The notes under the pieces: model-generated
Database searches by the model: none
The model's input: only the letters and a program-made list of their open reading frames with translations
Told to the model about the DNA's origin: nothing
NCBI GenBank assembly: GCA_947561715.1
Contig: OX387204.1
Coordinates: 11,103,001-11,167,000 of the forward strand
Direction of reading: 5' to 3'
Length of the DNA stretch: 64,000 nt
Source of the DNA: Ascidia mentula
Lineage: Eukaryota; Chordata; Ascidiacea; Phlebobranchia; Ascidiidae
Position numbers and translations under genes: made by a program
Shown: positions 13,101 through 39,300 of the stretch, one piece after another
Layout of the letters: each line of letters begins with the position of its first letter
How positions within the stretch are numbered: position 1 is the first letter of the stretch

Positions 13101-16100
13101 AGTACAAACTAAAAAGTATACTCGTTAAAATATTAAAAAAAACAATGTTTTTAGTGTACCAAACTTAAAGAGTCTGTTGGTGCTGGAGCTATTGCGTTGC
13201 AACAACTCCCAGAACTGCAAAAAGAAATAAAAGATTTGGTAGTTCAAAACAAAACTTTGACAGAAAATTACAACTCTGAGAGAAACCTAAGAAAAAAATA
13301 CTACAACATGGTTGAAGATATGAAAGGTTTTTTTACGGTGTTAAAGTGTATTATAAATTTAGTAAGATTTTCTATAACAGGTAAAATCCGTGTCTATTGT
13401 CGTGTACGTCCGTTAAGTTCAACAGAGAAACAAAACAACAACAGGAATATTGTGTTTTCGCCTGACGAATATACAATTAAAGTCGCACAATCGAAGGGTG
13501 ATATGAAAGAATTTCAGTTCGACCAAATATTTACTGAAGACAATACACAGGAAGACGTTTTTGAAAATACCTATAGGTACATATTACTTGTTTTGTTTGT
13601 CCTGGCGTTATTTTTTTGTTACGTTTATTCAAATTTTGTTTGCAAATACAGTTTGGTCCAATCAGCTGTTGATGGCTACAACGTTTGTGTTTTTGCGTAC
13701 GGTCAAACTGGATCCGGAAAAACTTACACGATGATTGGAGATAAAGAACAAAAAACTCCTGGATTGGCTTCAAGGGCTTTCAATCGAATATTTGAGCTAG
13801 TGGAAAAGAACCAACAAAAGTTTCAATTCCAGGTTCCCAATTGTCTTTTTTAATACGTGGTTGACAAATGCGAAAGTCGGCAAACCCTTCACGCGATACG
13901 ACTTCTAAACCTGGCGATAAACAGGGTTATCGCGCCATCACACAATGTAGCAAGAAGAAAGAGACAGTAGGTCGTGAATGCCCGATAATAGCTAGTAAAC
14001 TATGGGTTCTAGTTGCGGAGTAGCACAGCACCCTCTAAACGAGGCACAAATCGCCTGAGGCCAGGTCGCCGCAGCAGATATAAGGCAGTGCAGTGCAGCT
14101 CTTAGTCATTCCTCATCGACGGTTGTGAGCGCTTCATCTAGAAAGAACAGGATAACATCACTGAGAAAACAACGAATAAAGGTAATTTGTTAAAAATGAT
14201 TTAAAATCTTGCTGAAACTGTTGTTAGCATTATATGAAAAGGTTTTCTCTTATATGTAAGCATTCTGTGCGTTAGGGTTTCAGATCATTGTTGAAAAGTT
14301 ACCAAACGTTGTAATACTTTTTCACAGCGAATCAGACCAGAATGAAGACGTTTTTGTGTGTATTGAGTTTGGCCTGCGTAGCCGTAGCAATGCCTTCCTA
14401 CCGCCCCCAAAGGGCCCCGGAAGAGCTGAATGAAGAGGAAATCACATTTCTTGCGGATTTAGCACAAAACCTTCAAACATACGAATCAAGAACTCGTAAT
14501 ATTACCGAAGAACCAACAGACTTAAGAAAAGGCAGAGGTTTGTCGTTGTTTTATGTTCCATAGTTATTGCCCAAATTCATAGTGGAAACTTTTTACCGCT
14601 GTGCGTGAATAAATCTATATAATTTGAAAGCATGTCATTTTTACTAAGAACATAACAAACTTTTCTAAATGCGTTTATTTAATCAATATTCCCACATACG
14701 TTAAAAATTGCTAAATAGCCTGTAAATATAGATTTAGCAAGAAAGCTGGCTTATCTGCATGAAAATCATCCAATTTCTATCTTTGTACTTGATTGTCATT
14801 GTTATTTTCGTTTTGTTTTAGCTTGCATCACTGAGTCAGATTGTGAGGAGTGGGAGTTTTGTGCCGACACTGCTGATTATGTTCGAATTATCACTGAAGA
14901 ATATCATCACGAGTACGAAGCTGATAGACTCAAGACTAAGGCCAACATCAGAGGAAGAGAATGCTCAATTACTCCACACAATTTCATGAAAAGACTTGAC
15001 TCCAAAAACGTGGTCAAGCTGTTCAATGAATCCGTCGAAGAAATCAGATCTATTTTGGATAATTTCCAAATTGATACCGAACTTCCGATGGTGTTGGATG
15101 TTAAATTCGTTGACATTACTGAACCAGTTCTCCGAACAACAGGTTAGTTGCTGGCTGGTTGTGGTGCCCTATTTATTGTTTCCAATAATAATCACATTTC
15201 GTGTTGTTTCAGCTCAAGATTCCTACAGCCAGTTCATGAACCTGTTCCTTATCTTGGCTCTACGTGGTGACTCTGGAACAAACGACCGAACAAATCTTTT
15301 GCTTCTTCTTTCCATGTTTTCCCAGCAACAGCAGTCAATAACTGGCACTGGCGCTGGCTCGATGAACCTTCTTTCCAATCCTTTCCTTCTCTACTCCTTG
15401 CTGGATTCTGGGTCATCCGGCATTTCCTCAAACATTTTGCTCTACTCTTTCTTATTAAATCCCACTGGTTTAACCACAACACCAACAGTTTCCAGTGATC
15501 TCCCAGTCGGCTCAAACTTTTTCAGCAATCCACTTATGTTGTACAGCTTGCTTCAAAATTCTGGTGGGTCCAACGACAACAACCTTTTGTTGCTTATGTT
15601 TTTGTCAGGCGGAATCGGAGGAATTGGAGGAGCTGGTGCTGGAGCTGGTGGCGGCCTTGAGAGCATTTTGCCACTTCTTTTGCTTTCTAACTCCTCTTTG
15701 GGCGGAGGCAGCAGCGACCTCAGCAGTATCCTGCCACTCTTGCTCCTTGGAGGTGGTGGTCTTGGTGGTGGCCTTGGTGGTGGCCTTGGTGGTGTTCCCG
15801 GTCAAGCTGGAGGAATTAACCAACTTCTACCATTGCTTCTGCTTCAACCAGATATTTTGGGAGGTTCAGGCAGCGACAACAATCTTCTTCCGTTGCTCCT
15901 TCTTTCCGGAGGAGGATTAGGTGGTGCTGGAGCTGGTGGCGGCCTTGAGAGCATTTTGCCACTTCTTTTGCTTTCCAACTCTTCTTTGGGCGGAGGCAGC
16001 AGCGACCTCAGTAGTATCCTGCCACTCTTGCTCCTTGGAGGTGGTGGTCTTGGTGGTGGCCTTGGTGGTGTTCCCGGTCAAGCTGGAGGAATAAGCCAAC

Positions 16101-19100
16101 TTCTACCATTGCTTCTCCTTCAACCAGATATTTTGGGAGGTTCAGGCGGCGACAACAGTCTTCTTCCGTTGCTCCTTCTTTCCGGAGGAGGATTAGGTGG
16201 TGCTGGTGCTGGAGCTGGTGGCGGCCTTGAGAGCATTTTGCCACTTCTTTTGCTTTCCAACTCTTCTTTGGGCGGAGGCAGCAGCGACCTCAGCAGTATC
16301 CTGCCACTCTTGCTCCTTGGAGGTGGTGGTCTTGGTGGTGGTCTTGGTGGTGGCCTTGGTGGTGTTCCCGGTCAAGCTGGAGGAATTAACCAACTTCTTC
16401 CCCTTCTTTTGTTGGGCAACTCCAGTTTAGGTGGAGGATTGGGTGGCGACAATAATCTCCTTCTTCTCATGTTGCTCTCATCACAAGGAGCAGCAGGGGG
16501 CGTGCCTGGCGCTAGCGGTGGACTTGAGAGTATTTTGCCTTTATTGCTTCTTTCCAACTCATCTCTTGGAGGAATTGGAGGAAGTGGTGGAAGTAGCCTG
16601 AGCAACATTCTGCCTCTGCTACTGCTTTCTGGAGGAGGACTTGGGTCACAGATTGATCCCGCCACCGGCCTACCTATACAGTCACGTAAGTGTAGTTCAT
16701 TTTATTTTATTTGTTCACCGAAGTCAAACACGTAAACTGATTTTGTTTATGTTTTCAGTGTGTTTAAAACTGATTTATTTTACAGCGATTTCGAGTCTGT
16801 TGCCACTTCTACTCATCAACCAGTCCGGCTCCAACGACAACACGCTGTTGTTGTTTATTTTAATGTTCTCCCAACAGCTTCCTCAAACCGCCGGTTCACC
16901 AACTATTTTTGGATAGTCTTTTTGAATTGCCAACTTTTCCCATTGTTGTTCCTTGCTAAACGCAAGTAACATTTTTTAAATTTTTGAATGAAGTTCGCTC
17001 CACGTACGACAAAACAAGAAGTAATTTATGTGTTTTGACCCGAATGATATCGTTGCGTGCCGCCGAAACCCAGACCACTATAAGGTACGATGCACAGCTG
17101 TTCGTTGGTCAGCAAAGCGGAGGGATACGGCTTTCACGAATGTGTGTTTTTGTGAACGATGATATACGACGCCGTTCATTTTCTTGTTGGTTGTTTTTTC
17201 ATATTTGATTGGAATAAAATAAATCTATTTTGCAATACAATGTTGTAGTCCATTTCCGAAAATGCAAAAAGCATGACCCGGAAAGGCATGTGTTCAGAGA
17301 AGAGGCATAGCATATGCGAGATAAGTAGAGCTCGGAAATTTAAGTGGGCACTCTTTATGCTCAACTATCCAAAAACCTGCAACGCTGCCTTGTTGTGTTA
17401 CTCTGGATCACATATATGGGCAAACTGCGGCCGGCGGTCCAAATCTCTTGGGTCTTTAAATTTGGCCCGCAAGAGTCTGTCATGTATTAGGTGTCACTCA
17501 GAAATTTGTTCATGTTGTTCTTTTATGCAATTTTTTCGAACATTTTTTTACTTTTCGGTTTTAGTATTTTAATGTTTATTTTTGTGAAAGGTTAGTACAT
17601 AAACTATAGTGTAAACACGCTTTGTACACTTTAACAAACTTGTTCCATTGGCCCGCCTGTCGTTTTTGTAATAATTATTGGTCCGTGAGTCGAAAAGCAT
17701 GCCCACCCCGAATCTAATTTTTTGCTATTCTTATAAAGATATATTAATAAGACTTTTTTAATCAGATATCGTGTTACATGCTGGAGTTATACAACGAAAA
17801 ACTGATCGATTTACTATCGAAAACTCCGAAAGCGGATGTTCGTCTTGACATAAAAAAGGTGCTTTGTAAAGAATACCTGTATACCGATCTAAGTTTCCAA
17901 CAATCAAGGCTAAAACATTTTTTTAGGATAACAAAGGCATGGTGTTCGTGCAAGGCTGTGCAGTAGAAAAGGCTCAGTCGTCGGATGACTTGTATCGTAT
18001 ATTTCTCCGGGGTTCAGAAAGTCGGCACATTGCATCCACAAGTATGACCAGTTTGATATATGTTACTGAAACGTTTCAAAATGAAATATAAGTAAGGTAT
18101 AGCAACATACCTTTTAAGCGTATATTCTCACGACCCCATTGAAGCCTGATCAAATCACGCACACATATGTTGTGTGGTGCTGTGTTGTATTTTTTGCGCT
18201 GTCTGCTCAATCGTGTGTACCACAACTACATACTCAACCTATACATATGAAAACGAAATACTTTCAAACCAAAATTGACACATCAACAAACTACAATTGG
18301 GTCAGGCGAAAATAATAATTCAGCGACATATCTCTTAAAGTATCAGGTATATTTTACAATTTAAGCACAATGCAGTTACACACCAAAACAGGTTTAAAGA
18401 GAACTGTATAGGCCTATATATTGCTTGTATCAAGATATATCTTATTTAAACTATTTGGTTTGACATCAACGTATGATTTTGGTGTTACAGACATGAACAG
18501 CGAAAGTTCTCGTTCTCATTTAATCGTTGGCGTCATATTGGAAAGCACTAATCTTGCAACTGGAGCGGTAACACGTGGAAAGCTAAGTCTGGTAGATTTG
18601 GCTGGAAGTGAAAGAGTTGGTAAAACAGGTGCCACTGCCACACAACTAAAGGTAGGTATGATGATGAACAAAAGAAGGTATCCTGTGGTGATAGCGTTTT
18701 CTTTGCTTACGTTTACTTTAATTAGATACTTTGATTTTGTTCTGAGTTGCTAGACTTTATAAGGTTGGCAACCCATTTTCCAAACTCGGAGCCGCGAAAC
18801 CTATTTCAAATTGAAAACCGCCTGAAGGCGTCGAACTGAATTTCACGTGCTAAAACATTAAAGGAGTCTAAACAGACGGTAGTCGGTATACTGCTACCAA
18901 ATGTACACAAATTAGGCTTCAGCATACGTTTCTACCACCGAAAGCATAATACCTCTTAAAAAATGTACGTCCGCACCAAAAGTTTCCAGCGTTATTTATT
19001 TATTAAACAACATATTGACACAGAACAGAGAGATAGATAGAATAGCTGCATGTAGCTCTATGATTGCCGACCTCTGCGCCGGACTAATTATTTCGGCCTA

Positions 19101-20343: not shown

Positions 20344-22183
<1,840 letters not shown>

Positions 22184-22204
22184 TCATGCGTGATCTATTT
22201 TCAG

Positions 22205-22266
22205 GAGTGACGACACACGCAAGCGATAATCTAAATGAGTGACATGTGACGCGGCGGGCAGCTGCA
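22205..22266 (-). promoter_or_regulatory. Possible muscle enhancer: E-boxes and CRE-like half sites
   Basis: About 60-120 bp upstream of the TATA box lie CAGCTG (22259-22264), CATGTG (22243-22248) and two TGACG half sites (about 22208 and 22247). Myogenic E-boxes together with CRE-like sites are typical of tunicate muscle promoters. Clustering is seen; function is inferred. Confidence 0.35.
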
Positions 22267-22399
22267 TGTTGCCCCATGGAGTACACCAGATGTCGTTGCG
22301 CTGACGTTTAACATTCTCCAGATGAAGACGATGAAATGACAACACAACAGTACCAGGCGAATAAAGCATTACATTTTTGTCAAGACTTTTTATTGTTAT

Positions 22400-25300
22400 T
22401 AATTATGTGGAAATTTAATCACGGTATCGAGCACAGTTTATTGAACCATTTGGCACCTTTATGTGATCCAAATATATCTTATCTGATAAGACTATGAATG
22501 GTGATTACCTTTGTCGTAGTAAAATGTAATTGAACTTCGATTTGTAGTTTTTTACTTTATCACGCACCATAGACTGCTACATTTGTGTTGCAATGTTTCT
22601 ATGTATAAAAAAACAGTAGTTGGCTTGTTTTATTGCATAGGCCTAGCCTGTATAAGTTACAGTATGTTAGATTGCACTGTATGTACCAATTTGGAGTGTT
22701 GGCTAATGACACGCTTGACTGTATTAAAACAAATCACTTTTTTGGTGCGATACTTTTCTCTACGATTTGCACGGTCTTTTCGGAAAAAAAACATGTTAAT
22801 TTATGGAAAAGTTTATTGAATATATGTTAAGAAAGGTATGTATATGTTACAATTGATTACTGATGCTGCCAGGCATATTAGCCTATTAATACAAAGAGGC
22901 TCTCAAAATAACATACTTCCGTTAGCATTTCAAAAGCCCATTAGCTAAAAAAATCATATCCACAAAAGTCCAAGTAGGTGAAAAAATGTTAAATTTTGAA
23001 GCTGCCAATCAAAAATTATGACGAATGTAGGTTTCTAAATTTATAAATGCCGAACGTGGTGATATCATAAAAATATATGCGTCTTCTGTGGCTCCAGCGA
23101 ATGTTGTCTCTTCTGGTGTTATTTTGACACGCGAGTATTGCCTATTATTTATTTTCCCAATAGCTACCACAGTGTAGGTTAAATCGCTTTATTGTGTATG
23201 GCTGCAAGGTTTGGAGAATTCGATCAGAATAAGCAGCCGCCATATCTATAACCAGTCAATTCCTGTTGGAGACTCGATCATACGCTGGTGTGCTGAGACA
23301 GCAACCGCCAGACAGAGGTACTATTCTTCCAAGCTGCTATATCTGTCTAAGCTGCAGCTGTATCTATTCAAATGACTTTTAAAAAGTAGATTTTGCGGTA
23401 CAAAGCAAAATAAAAATACCACTTAAGATTTATAGTGGGTTGTTTATTGGCTTGTTTGAATAAATCAGGATCATTATCATTAATATGAGAAAATTAAAAA
23501 AAAAACTGGTTTAGATTATTTGTTAGACCACTTTGGCAGTCATGTATTAATTTGAATCATACCCATTGGTAAACTGCCACCATTTACTCAAATCAATTCA
23601 AATTAAATGCAAATAATAGTGCACCTTTTGTTGGTAGGCCTATTTTCCAGCAAACCCGATTTGCGTTTTGGACGTAGAATATTTGGGCGAATAAATTGTT
23701 ATCTTGCACACATAGTGTAAAAAAAGGACGTCATTCTCTTTGTACTACATGTTCAAGTAATGACAAGATTTTTTGAAGATGCTCGCAATTTTTTGCGGTA
23801 TCCATAAAGTCAGGAGAATATAAATCTGCTTGTGTCTTTGTTACTACGATAAAATACTAAATAATGGGGCACGACAAACAGGATAGGCTACAACAAAAAT
23901 GATATAAAAGTTATTATAAAGTAACCGCAGGGCCTTCATGCGATGAAATTTCTCCATATATGAGACAATTAGTTAGAGATCACTTTGGATTTTAGAGACA
24001 TCTCGTGGAGCCTGGAAGTAATGTAGTTTATTCTAAACATGCCGAAAATGTGTTTGTCGTGTAGTAGGGCAGTGATTCATAATTTTTTAGGTCATGGCAC
24101 ACTTGAATCCTGTGGAATCGTTTGCGACACACAAAAATTTAAAGTCGGTTTTAATAGCGTCTTTTTAGAGAGGAGCGACAGTGTTCCATTATTTTCCTCT
24201 GGACCGCACACTTTTTCGTTATCATCCGATAGAAGTTACTTAAATTTGAAGGTACTTAGTTTTTTTGCCATCAAAACATTGAGCGAAGCGCGTTTAAATA
24301 GCTTTGGGTTTCTTGTGTATTTATCGCGATATAACGTAAAACTACGATAGGGTTGCCAGACATCCGGATTTTGGAGCTAAAATCTGCGTCAGGGGGAAAT
24401 GGCAAAAAGTGCCAATGTGTCAGGAGTTTTGAACATGGCAGAACCACTAAAGGCAGGTAAATTAACGTAACATTCCGCAGTTGGGGCGCCAGAAACTCTG
24501 AAAAATTCGTTAACCAAAGTCAAGGTCAATGTTTCAAATTTTGGGACCTGAAAGTTGTCAAGGTGATTGATATAACTCTGTCCGGTATTGTGCTTTGACA
24601 GTCATGGTAATCCTAAACTATGCCGATGTAATTTTGGAATTTCAAAAAAATATTGCCACCTCAACATTTTGCTAAAAATAATATTTTGTTACATCTTTAC
24701 TCATTTCGCTGTAGCTTACCTTCTGTATTCTTTAAATTACAGTAGCCTAAATCAGTCAGTGAAAAGATGGCGGCATCATTGATCAATAGGTGGCAATAAA
24801 TTGGCCTAATTTATAGAGGTGCTTCAAAAATGTGCTCCCCTTTTACTTAATCCTAAATACGACACTGGTTTCAACTTAAACTATGTTTAAACAACACTAC
24901 TGTAGTCACACTTGAAACATTTCTAACCAACGGTGTGTGTCACATTAGTTATGCGTGTCGAGTGTTGTGTACACATACTTTATAAGTTGCAATGACTTGC
25001 ACCTAAAATGAAAGAACAAATATGGATTGAAAATTCGTTTTTTGAATGAGCAAATGTAGTTTGTAAAGCACGAATTCTCGCACACCTAGTTTCCGAGCTG
25101 TCAAAGTTCATTTAAATGTGAAAATATAAAAGTTACAAAAGCTAAAAGCAACATTTTTAGAATTAAAATAAAAAAACAGCATTTTGTCTTAAAAAGTGAT
25201 TTCAAAAAGAAAACTACCTAAATCAACAACAATAGTAAATTAATACACAACAAAATTCAAACAGCAATGACACAATGTAATAAACATTATGTGGTGTAAT

Positions 25301-25440
25301 GTATTTTTATCATACGCTACCTAAATAAAAAAGACACAAAGCAATAGTGGCAAAAATAATCCAGTAACAAGTGCATAAAATAGAAAAAAAATTAATCCTT
25401 CTTAAATCATTGAAATGTTATCTCATAATGTTTAAAATAC
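22400..25440. other. Intergenic, no gene recognised
   Basis: AT-rich, with short chance frames only. The 103-codon plus-strand frame at 24039-24350 has no recognisable motif. A piece at about 24350 (GGGTTGCCAGACATCCGGAT) resembles DNA-transposon termini but I could not find its partner. Confidence 0.5.
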
Positions 25441-25472
25441 ATTTCTAGTTTTATTGACAAATCTTCATACAT

Positions 25473-27821
25473 TTAAAATTTTAAGCCCCTCCATTTTGAC
25501 TTAAAATTTTGCGTGGAGTTTTCTCTTAATAGTTTATGTGTTGATAGTCCAACACTGAAAGAAGAAGTTGGTTCCAACTGTAAATCATGTGATTGATTCA
25601 CATTGCTGTGTATTTTTTCTGTTAAAAGGCTTCCAATCGAGTTCTCAAACAATGGGTCATTGTACAATGATTTCAACTCCGGTTCGGGTTTCAAAAAATT
25701 GTCGTCTTGCTTTTCACATAGTATGGCATCAATGTCACCTGAAACAGGTACCCACTCTGGAGGTGGTTCTATTTGTCTCCCTGTAATTGTCAGGTCAATA
25801 TCCCCTACATCAATAAGAAGATTATCCACTTGTTTCTCCCCATCTATTTGTTCCAGGTTAAGTGTGGTATAGTCTGTGCCACAGTTTTCAAATAATATTC
25901 CATCATTATCTGATTCTTCCCACATTATTGTATTATCAAGTGCATTTTCTTGACTAGCATTGCTGCAAACAAACTTGTTTTCATTGTTCAGATCTTCAAC
26001 ACCTTTATTCTGTACAATTGGGTTTGTAGACAGTATGGGTCCAGGTACAACTTCCAAATTAGTCAGTGGATTACTTGAAATTACTCCAGTAGTACGTTTT
26101 ATAGCAGTTGATGTTGGTGTTGGAATTTGTTCCTCATTTAGGCCAAAAACATCAGCAAAAACAGAATTCCAATTGTAATCACCTTTTAATGATCCTAGTT
26201 CAGGAGCTTGCTCTTGAAGTAGGTTTTTTTTGCTTTTCTTTTGCATATCTACAACTTTTTGACAGTTGCAAGCCTTCACATTTTTTTTGCAATTGATTAC
26301 TTTTTGGGGACTTTGCTGTTTTCTCTTTCTTCCTGATATTGTTAAAAACATGCTTTGCTTTGCATGTTCCACATCGTGGGGCTGTGATGCATCCAAGGAT
26401 TGAATGGATTCTGTAAATGCCAAATCACATAGAACACATAAAACATCATTTTACCTTCCATATCATGGCACTTATTTCTACAGTTATAATATTAACAAAC
26501 CTAATTTTATATTTACTGTTAAAATGACATTAAAAATGCTATGAATAAAACACATAAATCACTGCTTTACTACATATTTTTGATGTAAAGTGTGATTTAT
26601 TTTATTAGAAGCCACTCTAAGTGTAGCATGATTTTTCAAAAATTTTGTGTTGTATATTCAAAAATAAATTATGATACCTTTTTGACATTGTGTCGTGATT
26701 TCTGATGGGTTTATTTGCCAAAACGATGTATTACATGGCTGCTTCTTTTTTCGCTGCACTTTGGAGAAGCATTTGCTTTTCTCCAATATTTCTTCCACAG
26801 ATATCTAGAGGCATGTGTAATTTTTAATTTAATCATATACAACAAAAATTGTAATGTCATCACCGAAGTAATGTGAAAACACATCACAGTTTGAACATAC
26901 CTGGCACAGATCATCAGCATAACGGTAGTAAATGAAGTTGTCTTTGATCCATTTACATATTGAAGAAGATGTCATCCTACTACGTTTTGACTTTTGCAAT
27001 GCCATGTATATCAAGGAAATGAATGTAAATGGTGGCTTAACCAAAGCATTGGTTTTGTAGTCAACTGTCCCTTTATAGACGTCTTTTCTCATGTTGCTGG
27101 AAGAACTAAATGTATATGGTTTTGCTGCATCAGACAACAATGGGCCAATGCAGCTTTCTATTGGAAGTTTTGCATCATCTTCTACAATATGTTCGGCACT
27201 CAACATCGTGTTGCTGTTTACACAACAAGCCTTTTTCTTATTAGCTGCACACGCAAGTAACTGAGTTGGATATGAAACAGTCTGCCTCTTTACAAGAGGC
27301 TGATTTGATTTGGAAGAAGTGCATAAGTTAAAATCATTTAAATTGTGTTGATTATTGAAGTACAACTCTTCCTTAGGTGCAAAAAATGGTGTGCAGTTAA
27401 AATTTGTGTTTTGACTTGGTGACTTTGGAGCACAAAGCTTGCTGCAAGAAGCATTCTTTTGCAAAACAGGTCTTTGATGTGCAATTCGAAGAGATGCTTT
27501 TTCCTTTCCATTTACGTCACAGCATTGTCTGGAATCGATTGGGGGGTTAATATTGACATTGAGATTCCACAACCATTGCAAACTGGTCAAACTGTCATCA
27601 AGATGATCTCTACTGCAATTACCCTGTATAAACATAAAAGAACAAGAGCAACTAAAATGATATAAGCCCAGGCCTACATCACAAAAAATATGTTTATTGG
27701 AAACAAACATTTCCATTTAGCCTACCTGTTTTGGATAATGGTTGGAGAGTTCTTGAATGTTTTGCTGAATTTGTGCTTGGATTTGTCTTTTGGTAGAAAA
27801 TTTCCCACTGTTTCTCAACAT
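25473..27821 (-). CDS. FoxJ1-like forkhead protein with altered recognition helix
   Basis: Four exons in phase: 27821-27726, 27623-26901, 26804-26678, 26410-25473, giving 627 residues. Near the N-terminus DDSLTSLQWLWNLN matches the FoxJ1 motif DDSLTSLQWLQEF. The forkhead begins VKPPFTFISLIYMALQ, continues CKWIKDNFIYYRYADD (FoxJ1-like) and ends KCFSKV...FWQINP. Between these, where forkhead proteins have Q-NSIRHNLS, this protein has Q-ISVEEILE: the Asn, Arg and His that touch DNA bases are gone and two Glu are present. The alignment is ungapped and the splice phases around it agree, so this is not an obvious frame error. The long acidic C-terminus (SDNDGILFEN, PPPEWVPVSGDID) could be an activation region, and a basic GRKRKQQ stretch could direct nuclear entry. 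Known FoxJ1 drives motile-cilium genes; this paralogue may have lost or changed DNA binding. Confidence 0.88.
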
Positions 27822-27829
27822 GTTTTTCT

Positions 27830-28800
27830 TTTATAAATACATCATGCCAATTGCTATGTCAAAAGGTTTACCAATCTAAAATGGAATGTTAAGTAAATGG
27901 GGTGAAAGTAAACAATATTAGACAACTAACTAGCGAAGTGAATATAATAACAATTACCTACCTAAGTCAAATGCATTTTTTCAATGCATGAACAAAGAAG
28001 TAGGCCTAATTAGGTATAGTTTTTTAAACTCATACATTCAAACGAAAAAAACACAAATAAAGAAGACATGTTGCCATCACTGACATGTGCGTTATGACAT
28101 CAAGAATATGTAGCACATTATCTAAAAACTTCCTGGAAAGCCGTTTTAAGGTCAATCTACGAGTTAGGGTTTAGTAAACTAGTGCTGATGGAACAAGATT
28201 TCTTTCTTCAGGGCGTCACTAAATACCATGGTGATAACAACATCAATGTTTATGTTGGCATAGAAATCGTGTTTTTTGTCCAACTGGTGTAACTCTTGAG
28301 AGACGATATTTCTCTGGACGTTTGATTCGTTAAGTCAAATGTTTATTTTAGGGTTTACATCGCCTTTTGGATGCATTGTCTGCAATCCTTCAAAACTAGA
28401 TTTGTGAAAACCGATACTATTTGAATAAGGCGACAATGCTAAAATGAGCAATACACGCAATCTAATATGTTGCTCTGTTTTGCAAATGTCTTGCAGACCG
28501 ACTCAAAACTATGGTAAGCGAATTTTATTTCCGATTTTGTTGTTGGTATATTATTGGTTAACTGTGCTGATTGATGTATGATTTCTTGACGAAAAGCCGT
28601 GAACTATAGGGCTACGTTATCTGTATGCATTTGTGACCGTCATTGTCAAGTGATTGTGAAAGTGTGCTGAATTCACACGTTTTCGGAGTTTTGTAAGGCA
28701 GTTCTGCTATTAATGAAAATAACCAGTTACTGGGTATAGTCCCAATGTAAAGATATCTTCTGCATAAGGAATGGTCAACCACCGACCCGTGGTCGTTAAT
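27830..28800. other. Intergenic, possible small 5' exon
   Basis: No clear gene. At 28497-28513 a short segment sits between a good acceptor (cttgcag) and donor (gtaagc) and ends in ATG. It could be a 5' exon of the downstream plus-strand gene, since joining it to the acceptor before 30298 keeps the BTBD19 frame open. Support is weak. Confidence 0.3.
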
Positions 28801-28802
28801 TA

Positions 28803-29140
28803 TTTCCACATTATTTTAAAAGATTTTATTTGCCCTGGTGACATCTCGGTTACCATCACAAATTGAAGATCTATGTCTAAAAACACAGGAGAATTCCCGT
28901 CTGAATCACAAGAGTTGATTGATGTAATTGATGCTGTGAAACCTGTACGCAGACCGGTGCACCGTCTCCCAATGGCTCGGTACGGACTTTCAAAAGCACA
29001 GCGAATGCACGTGCTCGCCGAAATGCTGATGCCACCGCTTTAAGATTTCAACAGCTTAGGCGAAAATGTGCTTTAAAATCAAGAATGTTCGATCTTGAGC
29101 CCAGGACGATGTGGAATTGGCTGAATTCGCTGCGGACAGC
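28803..29140 (+). mobile_element. BEL/Pao leader and gag-start fragment
   Basis: This fragment is closely similar to 36363-36700, the 5' part of the large BEL/Pao copy in this window, in the same orientation. It covers the untranslated leader (TTTGCCCTGGTGACAT, with a possible tRNA primer site starting TGG) and the beginning of the gag region. The rest of the element is absent, so it is a truncated fossil of the same family. Confidence 0.85.
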
Positions 29141-29149
29141 TGTTAGACC

Positions 29150-30297
29150 TACGTTATATTTCTGTTGATAACACATCAAAATAGTAGCTAGAAAGCATTT
29201 TCGTGCTAATCATGAGAATCATGCTGATCATCAGGTATGGTTCGTTTCGAAATATCCCTAAAAAGTAGTCCAACGAATGAAAAGGGAGGAATGTTTTCTT
29301 TTGGAAAGCCAATTAACAGAACTGAAAGTTTATCAGATAATGGAATAATTGTGTGGGTATCACGATCGGATCCAGAAACTTTCTCACTTTTAGAAAGTAT
29401 TGTGATACAATGATGGCGATTTAATAAACATAAATCTATTTCTAGACAACTCTTTTGTCTGCAACTACAGCGCTCTTTTTACTGTTTTGACATGTCGTCC
29501 TTAGTCACCAGCTGCACAGTTTGCACTGTCTGAAAGTTCACTGATAATTATTGGCTTGTTTGATTCTTAACAATAGAAAAAAAGTGAGAAAACAACAAAA
29601 ATTAGACTATATAAGAATTCAAAACATGATTAACATATCACAACATTTATTGACTAACTAGAAAAAGGCGCACGCTGAATGCGCAGAATAGGAAAATCCA
29701 TGAAAATTGCACGCGGTCGAAAGAGCGAACAAAATGGATACATAAATGTTTGGCACAATTGTAGGCAATATCGTTTCACTTTAAGTAATATTAGCGGTCG
29801 AAAGAGCGAACAAAATGGATACATAAATGTTTGGCACAATTGTAGGCAATATCGTTTCACTTTAAGTAATATTAGTCCGAAAACCTACTTAAGTTTTGCA
29901 GTCTGTTCAATCAGGAAAAAAACAACAATCTCCAATCTCCCTGGTAGTCGACTTGTGACAAAGCTTCCTTTCACATCCATTTGTTATTTGATAATAATCT
30001 CAGGTTGTTTTGTGCTATGTGAGTATAAATGATGTCATTATGTTGTTTAAATCTTTCCATTTCATTGACAATCTACAGAACAGTGATAAAACCACTAGTC
30101 TGTAAAGTGTGGATTGGAGAACGTACTTGACTTTGACATAAGTTTCATACTTTAATTGCGGACAAGTTGGCCAAAGCTGCTCGTTACAATAGGAAATACC
30201 TTAGGCTTTAAAACCAGATGGGCTAGTTTTAGAGCGTTGCCTCAGGACATTTATATTTCGTCCTAACCTATTCAACTTGTGATCATAAGACGTACAG
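29150..30297. other. Upstream region of BTBD19
   Basis: No gene recognised apart from the 81-bp tandem duplication listed separately. An acceptor-like cgtacag ends at about 30297 and a second (ctgcacag) at 30317, just before the BTBD19 start; either could take a 5' exon or a trans-spliced leader. Confidence 0.4.
29713..29874 (+). repeat. 81-bp tandem duplication
   Basis: Two identical copies (29713-29793, 29794-29874) beginning GCGGTCGAAAGAGCGAACAA. The period is a multiple of three, so the plus strand stays open across both copies within a 117-codon frame. I see no splice or start context that makes it a gene. Confidence 0.9.
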
Positions 30298-30339
30298 TTT
30301 ATGTCACTGCACAGGATTGTTCTTAAAAACGTAGCTAAG

Positions 30340-31218
30340 ATGGAAGAAAGATTGGTACGAGGCGATCAGACGTCTTTTTACAGCCTAATGAGAAAGCGCT
30401 GCATTAACCACAAAGACTATAGCGATGTAATGTTTTTGGTTGGGCCACAAAGACAACTTATATATGCTCATAGATGCATTCTCGCAGCTCGATCAGAGGC
30501 TTTTCGTTCGATGTTTTCACAGCAGCCTATCCATGCAGTGGCTGGAAGAGACGCGCCTCATTCCCTTCCAGACGTGCGACCAGAAGTGTTTCTCACAGCA
30601 TTGGATTACATTTACAGCAACTGCTGCACGCTAACACAAGATCTTGCACCAGATGTGATGTCACTTGCCATTGAATATGGTTTAGATGGTTTAAAACGAC
30701 TTTCCTTGCGGTATTTGATGGATGGATTATGTGACGAGACAGCATGTGATGTACTGCAAGCTGCTGTTACCCATGCTCAACCAGACATGCTGCAAAAATC
30801 GCTTGAATTTATAGCTCTTAATGCGCTAAACGTTGTGAGATCTGATCGTTTTCAAGAACTTTCAGGTGAAGCTTTGGGAGCAGTTTTAAGAGGGGACTCG
30901 CTTGAAGCGGACGAAATGGATGTGTTAAGCGCTGTAAGACGCTGGTGCCGCAGTAACTCAATGCTTTCCAATAGGCACATAAAAGAACTAGCACCATCGG
31001 TGATGCCTCTCATTAGACTGCCGTTGTTATCACCTGAAGAACTAAAAAAAGTTGAGGAAGAAAACAAGAAAGATGGAATGATACCAATGGAGCAATTGGC
31101 AGCTGCATGGCGGTTTCACGCATTGAAGGAGAATACTCCACACTCTTATAGCACATGCCTTCGGGCAGGCACAAAACACCGACCTCATCACTCTTATTTG
31201 CCAAAAGAAAAGAAATAG
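30340..31218 (+). CDS. BTBD19: BTB/POZ domain-containing protein 19 orthologue
   Basis: A single coding exon of 292 residues from MEERLVRG, close to the 291 residues of human BTBD19. The BTB/POZ fold runs from about residue 15 to 115 (YSDVMFLVG, IYAHRCILAARSEAF), followed by a BACK-like helical region (about 130-250, with AVRRWCR and IPMEQLAAAW). The C-terminal RAGTKHRPHHSYL matches the human end. No Kelch repeats are present. BTB-BACK proteins usually dimerise and many act with cullin-3; the role of BTBD19 is not established. An in-frame ATG at 30301 would add 13 residues that the human protein lacks, so 30340 is preferred. Poly(A) signal AATAAA at 31265. Confidence 0.95.
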   Translation: MEERLVRGDQTSFYSLMRKRCINHKDYSDVMFLVGPQRQLIYAHRCILAARSEAFRSMFSQQPIHAVAGRDAPHSLPDVRPEVFLTALDYIYSNCCTLTQDLAPDVMSLAIEYGLDGLKRLSLRYLMDGLCDETACDVLQAAVTHAQPDMLQKSLEFIALNALNVVRSDRFQELSGEALGAVLRGDSLEADEMDVLSAVRRWCRSNSMLSNRHIKELAPSVMPLIRLPLLSPEELKKVEEENKKDGMIPMEQLAAAWRFHALKENTPHSYSTCLRAGTKHRPHHSYLPKEKK

Positions 31219-31289: not shown

Positions 31290-32365
31290 GATTTTTATTT
31301 CGTCCAGGCAGTCACGCCATCCACTGCAATCACTCCTTAATTCAACCAATGTTGTCCAACAGCATACAAAAGTAACTTTTCCAAATTCTTAAATATTTTC
31401 TATTTGTTGTAAACACAAAGCATTAAATTGTCCAGCATTGATCATGCTTTTTTGTTTTGCATATCGTTTCATGGCAATAACCTGCAATAAAAGTGTAATA
31501 ACGTTTTTGAGATATGATCGTATAAAGGCAAAAAATGTACAATGTTAAATTTAACATTTATTTGACTACAGTATGAAAAATGCAAAACTTTATTTGGCCA
31601 TGTTAAAATGCTAAATGGGACGTAGTACTTGTAATGTAATGAGGGTACGCAAAACCTCTTTTGGTAGGCTATTACGTGTGGTATTGTGTTGTACAAAACA
31701 TTTAATACTTACAGTCTTAAGGCCTTTGAAATGCATACGTTCTCACAACATTTTACTTCTGATTGTCGATAAACTCCAGTCGAGCTTGGCATCTGTCAAA
31801 CATCAGGCATCAGTTAGGTTTGCAGCAAAAATTGTCTTAACCTCATGACACGCAAAGCACACACGGATTCCAGCACAAACGAAATACGTTCTTACAAATT
31901 TTCTTAACATTTTTAGTGTAATAAGGCCGCAAATGCGAAACCTCAAGTGTGTATGGCGCTGCATAAAACAATGTAAGTTGTTGCAAAAAACTCAAAGAAA
32001 ACAAAACACACGCAGGAACACAGCAAAACTATTTTAAAGTGCATATGACACGGTCATGGCAACTTTGCGTAAAACTAAAGGTACATCTACAACATATATC
32101 AACAAACAAACAAGTTTTTCGGTTCTACGTCACTAAAAAATGTAGAAACGAAAAGTAGCGACGACCAAAATTGTCAACCTTTTTCGCTGTAGCAAGTTTG
32201 ACGCCACACGACGCAATCGCGTCAAAAAATGCATTGTTTACATTGTAGAAGGTGCCTTATATTGCAGATACCGAATAGTTTCAAGCATAGGAGAAACACT
32301 AATTTACGGAATAAGGAACCTAAGGAATCTAAGGAAACTCACACTAATTTATGGAGCTAAGGAAC
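31290..32365. other. Intergenic between BTBD19 and the minisatellite
   Basis: No gene, RNA or element that I can support. Short degenerate pieces of the minisatellite motif (ctaaggaatctaagg) appear from about 32310 onward. Confidence 0.5.
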
Positions 32366-32369
32366 GGAA

Positions 32370-35300
32370 ATAGTCTAAGGAAAATACAAAGGGCTTACGG
32401 AACTGGCCAGGGGCATCTAAGGAAAATATATACAGCTTGCCGAACTGGCCTATGGCGTCTAAGGAAAATACATACTGCTTACGGAACTGGCCAAGAGCGA
32501 CTAAGGAAAATACAAAGGGCTTACGGAACTGGCCAGGGGCATCTAAGGAAAATATATACAGCTTGCCGAACTGGCCTATGGCGTCTAAGGAAAATACATA
32601 GAGCTTACGGAACTGGCTAAGAGCGTCTAAGGAAAATATATAGAGCTTACGAAACGGGCCAAGGGCGTCTAAGGAAAATATATGGGGCTTTCGGAACTGA
32701 CCAAGGGCGTCTAAGGAAAGTAGATAGAGCTTACGGAACTGGCTAAGAGCGTCTAAGGAAAATATATAGAGCTCACGAAACTGGCCAAGGGCGTTTAAGG
32801 AAAATATATCGAGCTTACGAAACTGACCAAGGGCGTCTAGGGAAAGTAGATAGAGCTTACGGAACTGGCTAAGAGCGTCCAAGGAAAACATATCGAGCTC
32901 ACGAAACTGGCCTATGGCGTCTAAGGAAAATATATAGAGCTTACGAAACTGGCCAAGGGCGTCTAAGGAAAATATATAGAGCTTACGAAACTGGCCAAGG
33001 GCGTCCAAGGAAAATATATAGGGCTTACGAAACTGGCCTATGGCGTCTAAGGAAAATATATAGAGCTTACGGAACTGGCAAAGGGCGTCTAAGGAAAATA
33101 TATAGAGCTCACGAAACTGGCCTATGGAGTCTAAGGAAAATATATAGAGCTTACGAAACTGGCCAAGGGCGTGTAAGGAAAATACATAGAGCTTACGAAA
33201 CTGGCCAAGGGCGTCCAAGGAAAATATATAGGGCTTACGAAACTGGCCTATGGCGTCTAAGGAAAATATATAGAGCTTACGGAACTGGCAAAGGGCGTCT
33301 AAGGAAAATATATAGAGCTCACGAAACTGGCCAAGGGCGTCTAAGGAAAATATATAGAGCTTACGAAACTGACCAAGGGCGTCTAAGGAAAATATATAGA
33401 GCTCACGAAACTGGCCTATGGAGTCTAAGGAAAATATATAGAGCTCACGAAACTGGCCAAGGGCGTTTAAGGAAAATATATCGAGCTTACGAAACTGACC
33501 AAGGGCGTCTAGGGAAAGTAGATAGAGCTTACGGAACTGGCTAAGAGCGTCTAAGGAAAACATATCGAGCTCACGAAACTGGCCTATGGCGTCTAAGGAA
33601 AATATATAGAGCTTACGAAACTGGCCAAGGGCGTCTAAGGAAAATATATAGAGCTTACGAAACTGGCCAAGGGCGTCCAAGGAAAATATATAGGGCTTAC
33701 GAAACTGGCCTATGGCGTCTAAGGAAAATATATAGAGCTTACGGAACTGGCAAAGGGCGTCTAAGGAAAATATATAGAGCTCACGAAACTGGCCTATGGA
33801 GTCTAAGGAAAATATATAGAGCTTACGAAACTGGCCAAGGGCGTGTAAGGAAAATACATAGAGCTTACGAAACTGGCCAAGGGCGTCCAAGGAAAATATA
33901 TAGGGCTTACGATACTGGCCTATGGCGTCTAAGGAAAATATATAGAGCTTACGGAACTGGCAAAGGGCGTCTAAGGAAAATATATAGAGCTTACGAAACT
34001 GGCCAAGGGCGTCCAAGGAAAATATATAGGGCTTACGAAACTGGCCTATGGCGTCTAAGGAAAATATATAGAGCTTACGGAACTGGCAAAGGGCGTCTAA
34101 GGAAAATATATAGAGCTCACGAAACTGGCCTATGGAGTCTAAGGAAAATATATAGAGCTTACGAAACTGGCCAAGGGCGTGTAAGGAAAATACATAGAGC
34201 TTACGAAACTGGCCAAGGGCGTCCAAGGAAAATATATAGGGCTTACGAAACTGGCCTATGGCGTCTAAGGAAAATATATAGAGCTTACGGAACTGGCAAA
34301 GGGCGTCTAAGGAAAATATATAGAGCTCACGAAACTGGCCAAGGGCGTCTAAGGAAAATATATAGAGCTCACGAAACTGGCCTATGGAGTCTAAGGAAAA
34401 TATATAGAGCTCACGAAACTGGCCTATGGAGTCTAAGGAAAATATATAGAGCTTACGAAACTGGCCAAGGGCGTCTAAGGAAAATACATAGAGCTTACGA
34501 AACTGGCCAAGGGCGTCTAAGGAAAATACATAGAGCTTACGAAACTGGCCAAGGGCGTCCAAGGAAAATATATAGGGCTTACGGAACTGGCCAAGGGCGT
34601 CTAAGGAAAACATATAGGGCTTACGGAACGGGCCAAGGGCGTCTAAGAAAAGTAGATAGAGCTTACGGAACTGGCTGAGAGCGTCTAAGGAATATAAATA
34701 GAGCTAACGAAACTGGCCAAGGGCGTCTAAGGAAAATATGTAGAGCTTACGAAACTGACCAAGGGCGTCTAAGGAAAAATATAGAGCTTACGAAACTGAC
34801 CAAGGGCGTCTAAGGAAAATACATAGAGCTTACGAAACTGGACAAGGGCGTCCAAGGAAAATATATAGGGCTCACGGAACTGGCCAAGGGCGTCTAAGGA
34901 AAACATATAGGGCTTACGGAACGGGCCAAGGGCGTCTAAGAAAAATATATAGAGCTTACGAAACTGACCAAGGGCGTCTAAGGAAAAATATAGAGCTTAC
35001 GAAACTGGCCTATGGCGTCTAAGGAAAATATATAGAGCTTACGGAACTGTGGCTAAGGGCGTCTAAGGAAAATATATAGAGCTTACGAAACTGACCAAGG
35101 GCGTCTAAGGAAAGTAGATAGAGCTTACGGAACTGGAAAAAGGCGTCTAAGGAAAATATATAGAGCTTACGGAACGGGCCAAGGGCGTCTAAGGAAAACA
35201 TATAGGGCTTACGGAACGGGCCAAGGGCGTCTAAGGAAAATATATAGAGCTTACGGAACTGACTAAGGGCGTCTAAGGAAAATATATAGAGCTTACGGAA

Positions 35301-35465
35301 CGGGCCAAGGGCATCTAAGGAAACTATATAGAGCTTACGGAACTGACCAAGGGCGTCTAAGGAAAATATATAGGGCTTACGGAACGGGCCTACGGCGTCT
35401 AAGGAAAATATGTAGAGCTTACGGAACGGGCCAAAGGCATCTGAGGAAAATATATAGAGCTTACG
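32370..35465. repeat. 42-bp minisatellite, about 74 units, with higher-order repeats
   Basis: The unit contains CTAAGGAAAATATATAGAGC followed by TTACGAAACTGGCCAAGGGC plus GT, 42 bp. Units vary at a few fixed positions (TTACG/CTCACG, CCAAGGGC/CCTATGGC, GACC/GGCC). Variant blocks recur 672 bp apart (for example gggcgttt at 32789 and 33461), which is 16 units, so a higher-order unit has been duplicated. Since 42 is a multiple of three, the minus strand is open for 754 codons (34613-32349) with the period FSLDALGQFRKLYI. I treat that frame as a by-product of the period: no splice, promoter or flanking domain supports a gene. Confidence 0.95.
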
Positions 35466-36362: not shown

Positions 36363-39300
36363 TTCCACATTATTTTAAAAGATTTTATTTGCCCTGGTGA
36401 CATTTCGGTTACCATCACAAATTGAAGATCTATGTCTAAAGACACAGGAGAAGTCCCGTCCGCATCACAAGAGCTGTTTGATGTAATTGATGCTGTGAAA
36501 CCTGTACAAACCGGTGTACCGTCTTCCACCACATGCACCGTCTCCCACTTTCAAAAGCACAGCGAGTGCACGTGCCGCCGCTTTAAGACTTCAACAGCTT
36601 AAGCGAAGATGTGCTTTAAAATCAAGAATGTTGGATCTTCAGCTCGAGCTCTCTAAAGCCCAAGACGATGTGGAATTGGCTGAATTCGCTGCGGACACAG
36701 TAAGTGAATTCGACTCATGCGTATCTACGCAAGGATGGGACCTCACCCCAGTTATGAAGCAAGAGCCCATCTGTTTGAACACGCCAAAACTCCTGAACCA
36801 CACAAACTGGGAAAAACATCCACGAAGGAAAGCGACTTTTTGAGTCAACCAGACTCCAGAGTACATGAACATGATTTGACACCATCTGATAGACCGTCAT
36901 TGATGGACAGCAGTAAAATGATGAATGTGAACTCGACAGACAAGCCACTTGCGGCAGGCAAGTTACAAGCTCCAGTCGAGCCTTCCAGTGCCCTCCCAGC
37001 GAAGGATTTGGTCCAGCGGTTGCCACCAGCGCAGATGCCACTGGGGCCGGCACATTTAAGACGAGTCCTCTCAACCGAGCGTTGGGACCACATAAAATAC
37101 GTCCACAGGCGACTACCTCAGATTTGTTCGTATTTGCTGAAACCGTGAAGCAAGGTTTTAACTTACCCAAACTGACGTTAGAGAAATATGACGGAGATCC
37201 TCTTAATAATCACAAGTTCATGAACGATTTTGATCGACAAGGCTTATCTATCTGACGTCGATAAGTTGGGATACCTCTGTGAATTTTGCGTTGAAGACGC
37301 CCTGACTAACATTTTGGAATGCAAAAGCATGCCTCCCGAATTAGGATACAGGGAGGCATTGGATATACTCCACAGGAGACATGGGAGATTAGATCTTGTT
37401 GTTAGAGCACATATGGACAGATTGACCTGTCGGCCGCCACTTAAAGACAACGACTTCGGGGGTTTGCGTTCTTTTCGAGCACAGGCTTCTGAGAGTTATG
37501 AGCTGTTCAGTCAGTGGAACTGTCAGTACACATTTGATTTGCCACAAAACATTGAGGCCGTTGTACAACGTTTGCCACAAAACGCGATCAGACGATTTAT
37601 CACAAAGTCATCCGAACTCCGTTTGCGAAATCGGCCAGTGACTTTTCAAACCTTGTTGGATCTTCTTGAGCTGTTGGCAGAGGATAATCGTTCGCCAATG
37701 ATGAGGTTTGTTTCCGTCGACGAATGTAAGTCAAAAGGTCAAGCGAGCATGAAAGGAAAGCCGCCCGAGCGAGTTGCAGCTACCTACTCAACGGTTACCA
37801 ACGGTGTCTCAGCGGAGACTTCTGTGGATCACGACTCCCTCCGACCCACTCAAACCTGCCCCGATTGCGAAGCCTTTCATTTTTTGTGGAAATGCGAGGT
37901 CTTCAAGAAACGGTCGCTCAAAGAACGCCACGCATTGGTACGTCGTAACAAGTTGTGTTACAATTGCTTTCGTCCCGACCATTTCGCGTCTGAGTGCACA
38001 TTGAATCAGGTGTGTCGACTAGAGGATTGTGGAAAAAGGCACCACACACTACTACATTGGACACATCCTATTGGTCCATCGGTTCAACGCACAAGTTCAC
38101 CGGTGAAAGGTCATGGGGCCGGCGTGTCTGGAACGTCTGCTGCCACGCTACGAGCGCTATTGGCACATCCGCGACCTTGAATTGCCTGTAATTGATTGTC
38201 CAGATATTGACTTGCTTGTTGCAGCCGATGTGTACGAGGCGCACGAACAACGCGATATTGTGCGTGGCACACGAAGCGACCCCGTTGCTATACGCACTGG
38301 GTAGAGTTGGTGCTTGTTTGGCCCAGGAAGAGAACATTCCAGCCAGAAAGCCTGTATCAACTTCATGCATTCAGACACGGAACTAAATCGCCATTTGGAT
38401 CAACTATACAGTGATGAGTTTCAGGAGAAAGGCCATCAAGGCCCGGGACTGTCACTTGATGACAAACGCGCTATTTCCTGTGGATGGACATTTACTAGAT
38501 TGGGTTACCTTGGAAGTCGCCCGAACCGAAGCAGCCATACAATAGAAATTTGGCAGAGCGACTTGCTACATCTAAAGCGGCGTTTGGAGAAAGATACCAA
38601 GTTTTTTGAAAAGTACAAAGAAAAAATAGAGGATTACTTAAAACAAGGGTTTGCGCGGAGAATACCCACGGACTGTTTGCCATGTACAGAGCAAACATGG
38701 TACATACCACATCATGCTGCGGGTAGCAAATTTCGAATTGTTTTCGACTGTGCTGCTTGCCACAAAAGAATCCTCTTTGAACGACAAGGTGTTACAAGGG
38801 CCAGACCTTACCAATAGTATTGTGGGAGTGCTGATACGTTTTCGCCAGGAGGTTGTTGCCTTTGCGGCCGACATCAAGTGAAGGTTGTTCCAAAGGACTG
38901 TGATTCACTATGATTTCTATGGTGGCCTGATAGCGATTTAAAACGCTCCCCTGTGGACTACCAAATGCTTGTGCATTTGTTTGGTGCACCTCTTCGCCGA
39001 GTTCTGCAAGCTTTGCGCTAAGAAAAGCAGCGTTGGATAAGAAGGACTTGTTTTCGACACCAGTTGTTGAGACTGTTTTAAAGAATTTTTATGTAGACGA
39101 CTATCTTAAGTCAGTGCCAACAGTTGCCCTGGCCACTGAGCTTATTAAGGATGTAAGTGCCATTTTGCGTGAGGGAGGATTTCATCTAACGAAATTTCTC
39201 AGCAACTCATCTGTTGTGCTTGAATCTGTACACCAGGACGACCGCTCGGTGTTGAACTTGGATTTATCGAACTTGCCGTTGGAAAGAGCATTGGGTGTTC

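What the first reader, a model, noticed from the sequence alone, without database searches (positions are those of the whole stretch)
26678..27016. FoxJ1 paralogue whose DNA-recognition helix has lost Asn, Arg and His
The forkhead aligns to FoxJ1 without gaps, but the helix-3 motif NSIRHNLS is replaced by ISVEEILE. The three base- and backbone-contacting residues are gone and two acidic residues replace Arg-His. Flanking blocks (YYRYADD, KCFSKV, FWQINP) and splice phases are intact and the N-terminal FoxJ1 motif is kept, so the gene looks maintained. It could be a dimer-free competitor for co-factors, a factor with new specificity, or a protein tethered by partners. The change begins exactly at an exon junction, so exon replacement is also possible.
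Basis: partly seen in the sequence, partly recalled or inferred. Interest (0 to 1): 0.78.

Follow-up and report, generated by a model that had tools for sequence, protein, structure and literature searches.

The report
FoxJ1 without its DNA-reading helix
In this animal genome the only recognisable FoxJ1 gene, normally the master switch for motile cilia, encodes a protein whose DNA-reading helix has lost the residues that touch DNA while the gene stays intact, so it may act through partner proteins instead of by reading DNA itself.

Summary
The minus-strand gene at 25473-27821 has four exons and an open frame of 627 codons. Its forkhead aligns to other Fox domains without gaps, but NSIRHNLS is replaced by ISVEEILE. 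'Paralogue' is not supported: the protein has FoxJ1 landmarks in FoxJ1 order, and six searches of the animal's own 196-Mb assembly showed no other FoxJ1. Arg and His are kept in 25 of 25 other recognition helices read from this genome, Asn in 23, Asp in 2. Damage goes beyond helix 3: the Trp before it, on the preceding exon, and GKG of wing 1 are lost too, and loss is not significantly concentrated in helix 3. The frame has no stop, where base-by-base neutral change as deep as in helix 3 would leave about 30. I favour a maintained FoxJ1 that no longer reads forkhead sites and is held at cilia genes by partners, RFX above all; in Xenopus Foxj1 already sits at promoters poor in Fox motifs with help from Rfx2 (PMC5245798, passages). 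Loss of binding and tethering are inferred. No relative or transcript was available; slow decay remains a serious rival.

The parts
27726..27821 (-). Exon 1 (ATG at 27821; 32 codons), proposed
   Evidence: Open frame, GT donor, phase 0 to exon 2; start codon inferred
26901..27623 (-). Exon 2: FoxJ1 N-terminal motif LDDSLTSLQWLW and first half of the forkhead (VKPPFTF...YYRYADDLCQ)
   Evidence: part before the forkhead (exon 1 and most of exon 2) scores 78 against recalled human FOXJ1, best of 1000 shuffles 48; forkhead half alone 47.2 bits in Pfam
26805..26900 (-). Intron 2, 96 nt, GT...AG, at the WQ|NS position of the forkhead
   Evidence: L020/L023, L029/L019 and L026 of this genome have an intron at the same place
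26781..26804 (-). Helix 3 (recognition helix) octet ISVEEILE in place of NSIRHNLS
26678..26804 (-). Exon 3: helix 3, KCFSKVQRKKKQPCNTSFWQINP (wing 1 GKG lost), SEITTQCQK
25473..26410 (-). Exon 4: basic GRKRKQ (possible nuclear-localisation signal, inferred), LKGDYNW...F, DIDLTITGRQI, stop codon
   Evidence: same landmarks and order as recalled human FOXJ1; only one match in the genome
26761..26786 (-). Inverted repeat TTGGAGAA-10 nt-TTCTCCAA from the end of helix 3 into KCFSK; possible trace of a template switch
   Evidence: found at this place in 0.5% of codon shuffles, but chosen after the fact; 43% of shuffles have at least one such repeat somewhere in the coding sequence

Best explanation
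This is the single FoxJ1 orthologue found in the animal, probably a tunicate. It is a maintained gene whose forkhead keeps enough of its core to be recognised but no longer reads a forkhead site: Asn, Arg and His of helix 3 are replaced by Ile, Glu, Glu, and wing 1 is altered. I propose that it works as a co-regulator of cilia genes without reading DNA: it enters the nucleus, is held at promoters by RFX factors bound to X-boxes (and possibly by other partners that meet the now acidic helix face), and acts through its conserved N- and C-terminal motifs. Shown: anatomy, orthology (against recalled FoxJ1), no other FoxJ1 among the matches in the assembly, loss of the contact residues, open frame, RFX domains present. 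Inferred: loss of DNA binding, tethering, a role in cilia.
For: Gene model and FoxJ1 landmarks (blastp to recalled human FOXJ1 E 4e-27; N-terminal part reached by 0 of 1000 shuffles, C-terminal part by 1 of 1000). Tree of 25 forkheads puts it with recalled FOXJ1, support 98/81 with helix 3 masked (bootstrap not settled), 94/83 unmasked. No other FoxJ1 by Pfam forkhead, FoxJ1-type forkhead, forkhead half, exons 1+2, exon 3 or exon 4. R and H in 25 of 25 other helices read, N in 23, D in 2. In the octet S, V/I and L are kept; N, R, H, N, S are changed. No stop in 627 codons against about 30 simulated. Five RFX-domain matches at four places. [quoted passage not shown] sites with an Rfx motif and no forkhead motif lose Foxj1 drastically without Rfx2; the authors mention Foxj1 possibly dispensing with Fox motifs entirely. 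PMC7062188, passages: core contact residues of helix 3 strictly conserved even across Fox members of different specificity. PMC6009666, passages: the Asn165-adenine contact is a conserved feature.
Against: No orthologue, transcript, structure or binding data. The forkhead branch is very long (1.84-2.38), which also fits decay. Near-invariant positions are kept 2 of 7 in helix 3 and 13 of 26 outside; the difference is not significant (Fisher p 0.41; 0.21 if only positions shared with recalled FOXJ1 are used), so loss is not shown to be aimed at the DNA face. The stop-codon argument assumes base-by-base change; the octet is as far from NS[IV]RHNLS codons as random codons are (13 changes; 80% of 300 nulls as near or nearer), so it could have come in one event. 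Wing 1 keeps QRKKKQ, so some DNA affinity may remain. The main model of PMC5245798 has Foxj1 bound directly at enhancers. X-box scan not usable: 132 sites against 3 for the reversed pattern, but of 15 loci read several were repeat copies and I recognised no cilia gene. X-box-like sites in the window are at chance level (15 against 13.4 expected). Motile-cilia genes were not tested (tektin search did not complete).
Confidence: 0.42

Rival explanations
1. Relaxed constraint: cilia genes of this lineage no longer need FoxJ1's forkhead, and the domain decays while other parts linger.
For: Long branch, 1.84-2.38 against a median end branch of 0.23-0.26; losses spread over the domain, 13 of 26 near-invariant positions outside helix 3 also changed, no significant concentration in helix 3.
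Against: No stop or frameshift in 627 codons; FoxJ1 motifs on both sides of the forkhead kept.
Confidence: 0.27
2. Interfering protein: it takes RFX or other FoxJ1 partners away and damps cilia genes, another Fox (FoxJ2/3 type at C69) doing the activating.
For: A FoxJ2/3-type gene with a normal helix is present (grouping with recalled FOXJ2 is weakly supported); partner-side motifs kept.
Against: With no active FoxJ1 found there is nothing obvious to compete with; no expression data.
Confidence: 0.1
3. New DNA specificity: the altered helix reads another sequence.
For: Forkhead profile and basic wing residues kept.
Against: Three glutamates in the octet, two of them in place of Arg and His; Fox members of different specificity keep the contacts; wing 1 GKG lost.
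Confidence: 0.08
4. Artefact: a normal helix 3 exists in an alternative exon or in sequence missing from or wrong in the assembly.
For: Intron 2 acceptor poor in pyrimidines; one assembly of unknown completeness; the genome tool scores only best candidates; the genome-wide forkhead searches did not list the window's own exon 3.
Against: No NSIRHNLS-like peptide at 6 of 8 in 22001-31000; the separate second-half forkhead exons listed were read and each lies beside a first half of its own; exon 3 continues in register through KCFSKV and FWQINP.
Confidence: 0.12

Closest known systems
FoxJ1 (vertebrate FOXJ1), forkhead transcription factor
   Same: Landmarks in the same order: LDDSLTSLQWL, TN..VKPP, forkhead, KRKQ, LKG..W..F, D.DLTI.GR.I (human sequence recalled)
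   Different: Helix 3 ISVEEILE; Trp before it is Cys; wing 1 GKG lost; no counterpart of the basic stretch after the domain
Rfx2-stabilised Foxj1 at promoters (Xenopus, PMC5245798, passages)
   Same: A way for FoxJ1 to act at cilia promoters without a forkhead motif there
   Different: There Foxj1 is thought to bind enhancers directly; here direct reading is predicted lost
Fox proteins with the alternative FHL specificity (FOXN1, PMC7062188, passages)
   Same: Forkheads that depart from the usual DNA reading
   Different: They keep Asn, Arg, His of helix 3; this protein does not

Membership tests
FoxJ1 orthology group | Forkhead closest to FoxJ1 | tested here: met
   98/81 with helix 3 masked (bootstrap not settled), 94/83 unmasked; long branch; reference recalled
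FoxJ1 orthology group | N-terminal LDDSLTSLQWL and C-terminal LKG..W / DLTI.GR motifs | tested here: met
   shuffles 0 of 1000 and 1 of 1000; against recalled human FOXJ1
FoxJ1 orthology group | No second FoxJ1 in the genome | tested here: met
   best candidates only, assembly completeness unknown
Sequence-specific forkhead transcription factor | N..RH contact residues of helix 3 | tested here: not met
   I..EE in place of N..RH
Sequence-specific forkhead transcription factor | Forkhead domain by sequence profile | tested here: met
   PF00250 74.4 bits; 71.7 bits in the full protein
Sequence-specific forkhead transcription factor | DNA binding in vitro | not testable with these tools
   Needs protein
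RFX-tethered cofactor | Contact with RFX at X-box promoters | not testable with these tools
   RFX domains present; contact not tested
Tunicate origin | GH6 domain in an animal genome (recalled marker; PMC10334666, search listing, concerns a horizontally transferred GH6 in Ciona) | tested here: inconclusive
   Two partial matches over cut-off, 32.0 and 27.8 bits, 0 in 14 control genomes; supportive only

The most novel reading that the evidence does not exclude
A whole animal lineage runs its motile-cilia programme with a FoxJ1 that cannot read DNA: the master regulator has become a pure co-activator steered by RFX, its former recognition helix rebuilt into an acidic protein-binding face.
Probability: 0.28. 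Interest if true: 0.85.

Novelty: new variant of a known kind. Interest (0 to 1): 0.62.

Why it matters
FoxJ1 is treated as the conserved DNA-binding master regulator of motile cilia. A natural FoxJ1 without the contact residues, the only one found in its genome, would let one test directly how much of FoxJ1's work needs its own DNA reading and how much is delivered by RFX, a question that the Xenopus data leave open (PMC5245798, passages).

Tried and rejected
Compensating frameshifts as origin of ISVEEILE: the gapped path from NS[IV]RHNLS codons is no better than for random codons (69% of 300 nulls as good); not supported. The same call shows the octet no nearer to ancestral codons than random ones, which leaves one-step replacement of that stretch open. 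Template switch through the inverted repeat: 0.5% of shuffles at that place, but post hoc; left as a hint. Hidden normal exon in 22001-31000: none at 6 of 8. Alternative in-phase acceptor inside exon 3 (TTGGAG|AAAAGC) would remove the octet and not restore the motif; no pyrimidine tract before it, thought unlikely. Concentration of loss in helix 3: not significant. X-boxes in the genome (15 loci read): several in repeats, no cilia gene recognised; not used as support. Scan of bacterial and archaeal genomes for stray relatives: 11 stretches matched a pattern, none confirmed; viral contigs were not scanned. Literature: searches (20 of 269 listed; 25 of 25; 10 of 136; 0; 12 of 15) listed no title or abstract start that describes a FoxJ1 without contact residues or a tunicate FoxJ1 sequence. 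PMC5526266 and PMC4077281 were looked at by passages; no FoxJ1 helix of a tunicate in the passages shown. The Styela clava survey (PMC8122590, passages) names FoxB, FoxK, FoxL and FoxS as not found, not FoxJ. Structure prediction was not run: the spliced protein cannot be read letter for letter from the DNA, which that tool requires.

Dropped rows: one search used 19 other Fox rows of this genome and left out L011, L014, L025, L026, L027, L028; one search used 25 rows and left out L014, L025, L027, L028. The count of 25 helices covers L001-L017, L019, L022, L023, L030, L026 and L074-L076; the splice of L026 is my reading.

Full report
What is there. On the minus strand a four-exon gene runs from 27821 to 25473 (exons 27821-27726, 27623-26901, 26804-26678, 26410-25473) and encodes 627 amino acids without a stop. 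All three introns are GT-AG and join in frame; exons and start are predicted, not confirmed by RNA. The forkhead lies in exons 2 and 3 and scores 74.4 bits against Pfam PF00250. It aligns without gaps to FOXA2 and to the chain of 1VTN. In the helix-3 octet the usual NSIRHNLS reads ISVEEILE. Exon 3 alone finds the forkhead profile in the right register (24.0 bits, E 4e-5, below Pfam's cut-off of 27) and solved forkheads weakly (best E 0.022).

Which Fox it is. The protein carries FoxJ1 landmarks in FoxJ1 order: LDDSLTSLQWLW near the N-terminus, TNALVKPP, the forkhead, GRKRKQ, ELGSLKGDYNWNSVF and DIDLTITGRQI. Against human FOXJ1 (recalled) the part before the forkhead scores 78 where the best of 1000 shuffles reaches 48; the part from GRKRKQ on scores 62, reached by one of 1000. 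A maximum-likelihood tree of 25 forkheads, three of them recalled human ones, joins it to FOXJ1 with 98/81 support when helix 3 is masked (bootstrap not settled) and 94/83 when it is not, on a long branch of 1.84 and 2.38 changes per site.

Not a paralogue, as far as can be seen. The window lies in an assembly of 195.8 Mb in 79 contigs. Searches of it with the Pfam forkhead (34 matches), the exon-2 forkhead half (18), exon 3 with ten residues of exon 4 (1), a FoxJ1-type forkhead (27), exon 4 (1) and exons 1 and 2 (15) showed no other FoxJ1. Limits: only best candidates are scored, completeness is unknown, and the forkhead searches did not list the window's own exon 3, so an equally divergent second half could be missed; exons 2 and 4 would still be expected to show. 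Two partial GH6 matches agree with a tunicate but do not prove it.

How unusual the change is. In 25 other recognition helices that I read from the same genome Arg and His are present in 25 of 25, Asn in 23 and Asp in 2. Even a very divergent Fox on the same contig (C72:1388294) reads NAVRHQLC. The literature seen says that the core contacts of helix 3 are strictly conserved even between Fox proteins of different specificity (PMC7062188, passages) and that the Asn contact is a conserved feature (PMC6009666, passages). Against 19 other Fox rows the protein keeps 7 of 14 near-invariant positions before helix 3, 2 of 7 in it and 6 of 12 after it. Lost are, among others, the Trp just before helix 3, which is on exon 2, and GKG of wing 1. 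The change is therefore not confined to one exon. Loss in helix 3 is not significantly higher than outside (Fisher p 0.41, or 0.21 for positions shared with recalled FOXJ1). Within the octet the kept residues are S, V and L and the changed ones N, R, H, N and S; three of these became Glu and the charge without His goes from +1 to -3. That the kept ones face the core is from recalled structure.

Is the gene alive. If change as deep as in helix 3 (at least 13 of 36 bases) had run neutrally and base by base through the coding sequence, about 30 stops would be expected, never under 14 in 500 simulations; there are none. This speaks against an old pseudogene. It is weaker if helix 3 changed in one event: the octet is no nearer to ancestral codons than random codons are. 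Expression is not shown, and decay of the domain inside a live gene remains possible.

How it may work. I favour a FoxJ1 that has given up direct reading and is held at cilia genes by RFX. [quoted passage not shown] the authors' main model keeps Foxj1 on enhancers, but they mention that it might dispense with Fox motifs (PMC5245798, passages). Five RFX-domain matches at four places are present in this genome. The contact is untested. A search for X-boxes gave nothing usable, X-box-like sites in the window are at chance level, and the tektin search did not complete.

Origin. A compensating double frameshift is not supported. An inverted repeat at 26761-26786 could reflect a template switch, but was noticed after the fact.

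Verdict. The mechanism is inferred; relatives and transcripts decide.

Noticed in passing
L026 (G000:C72:1388294-1388434): Very divergent Fox gene on the same contig: KPPLPYNQLIYLAFQQ...HQTWQ, next exon (my reading) begins NAVRHQLCCCKDYE; keeps N, R, H; family not settled; longest branch in the tree.
   Followed up: partly
window 32349-35465: Long tandem-repeat stretch open on both strands (FSLDALGQFRKLYI-type repeats, 784 aa on the minus strand).
   Followed up: no
window 36499-42292: Pieces like a retroelement polyprotein: DUF1759 and zinc knuckle at 37224-38180, no Pfam match for 41156-42292; a similar-looking fragment near 28900-29100, on the 5' side of the FoxJ1 gene.
   Followed up: no
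window 30343-31218: Open frame with BTB and BACK domains next to FoxJ1.
   Followed up: no
window 13155-18753: Kinesin motor exons (Pfam for 13155-13853; later ones by eye) whose span holds a 581-aa Leu/Gly/Ser-rich repetitive open frame at 14990-16735.
   Followed up: no
window 29714-29875: Direct tandem duplication of about 80 bases between the FoxJ1 and BTB genes.
   Followed up: no
G000 genome: GTTRCCATGGYAAC occurs 132 times against 3 for the reversed pattern; at least some sites lie in repeated elements.
   Followed up: partly
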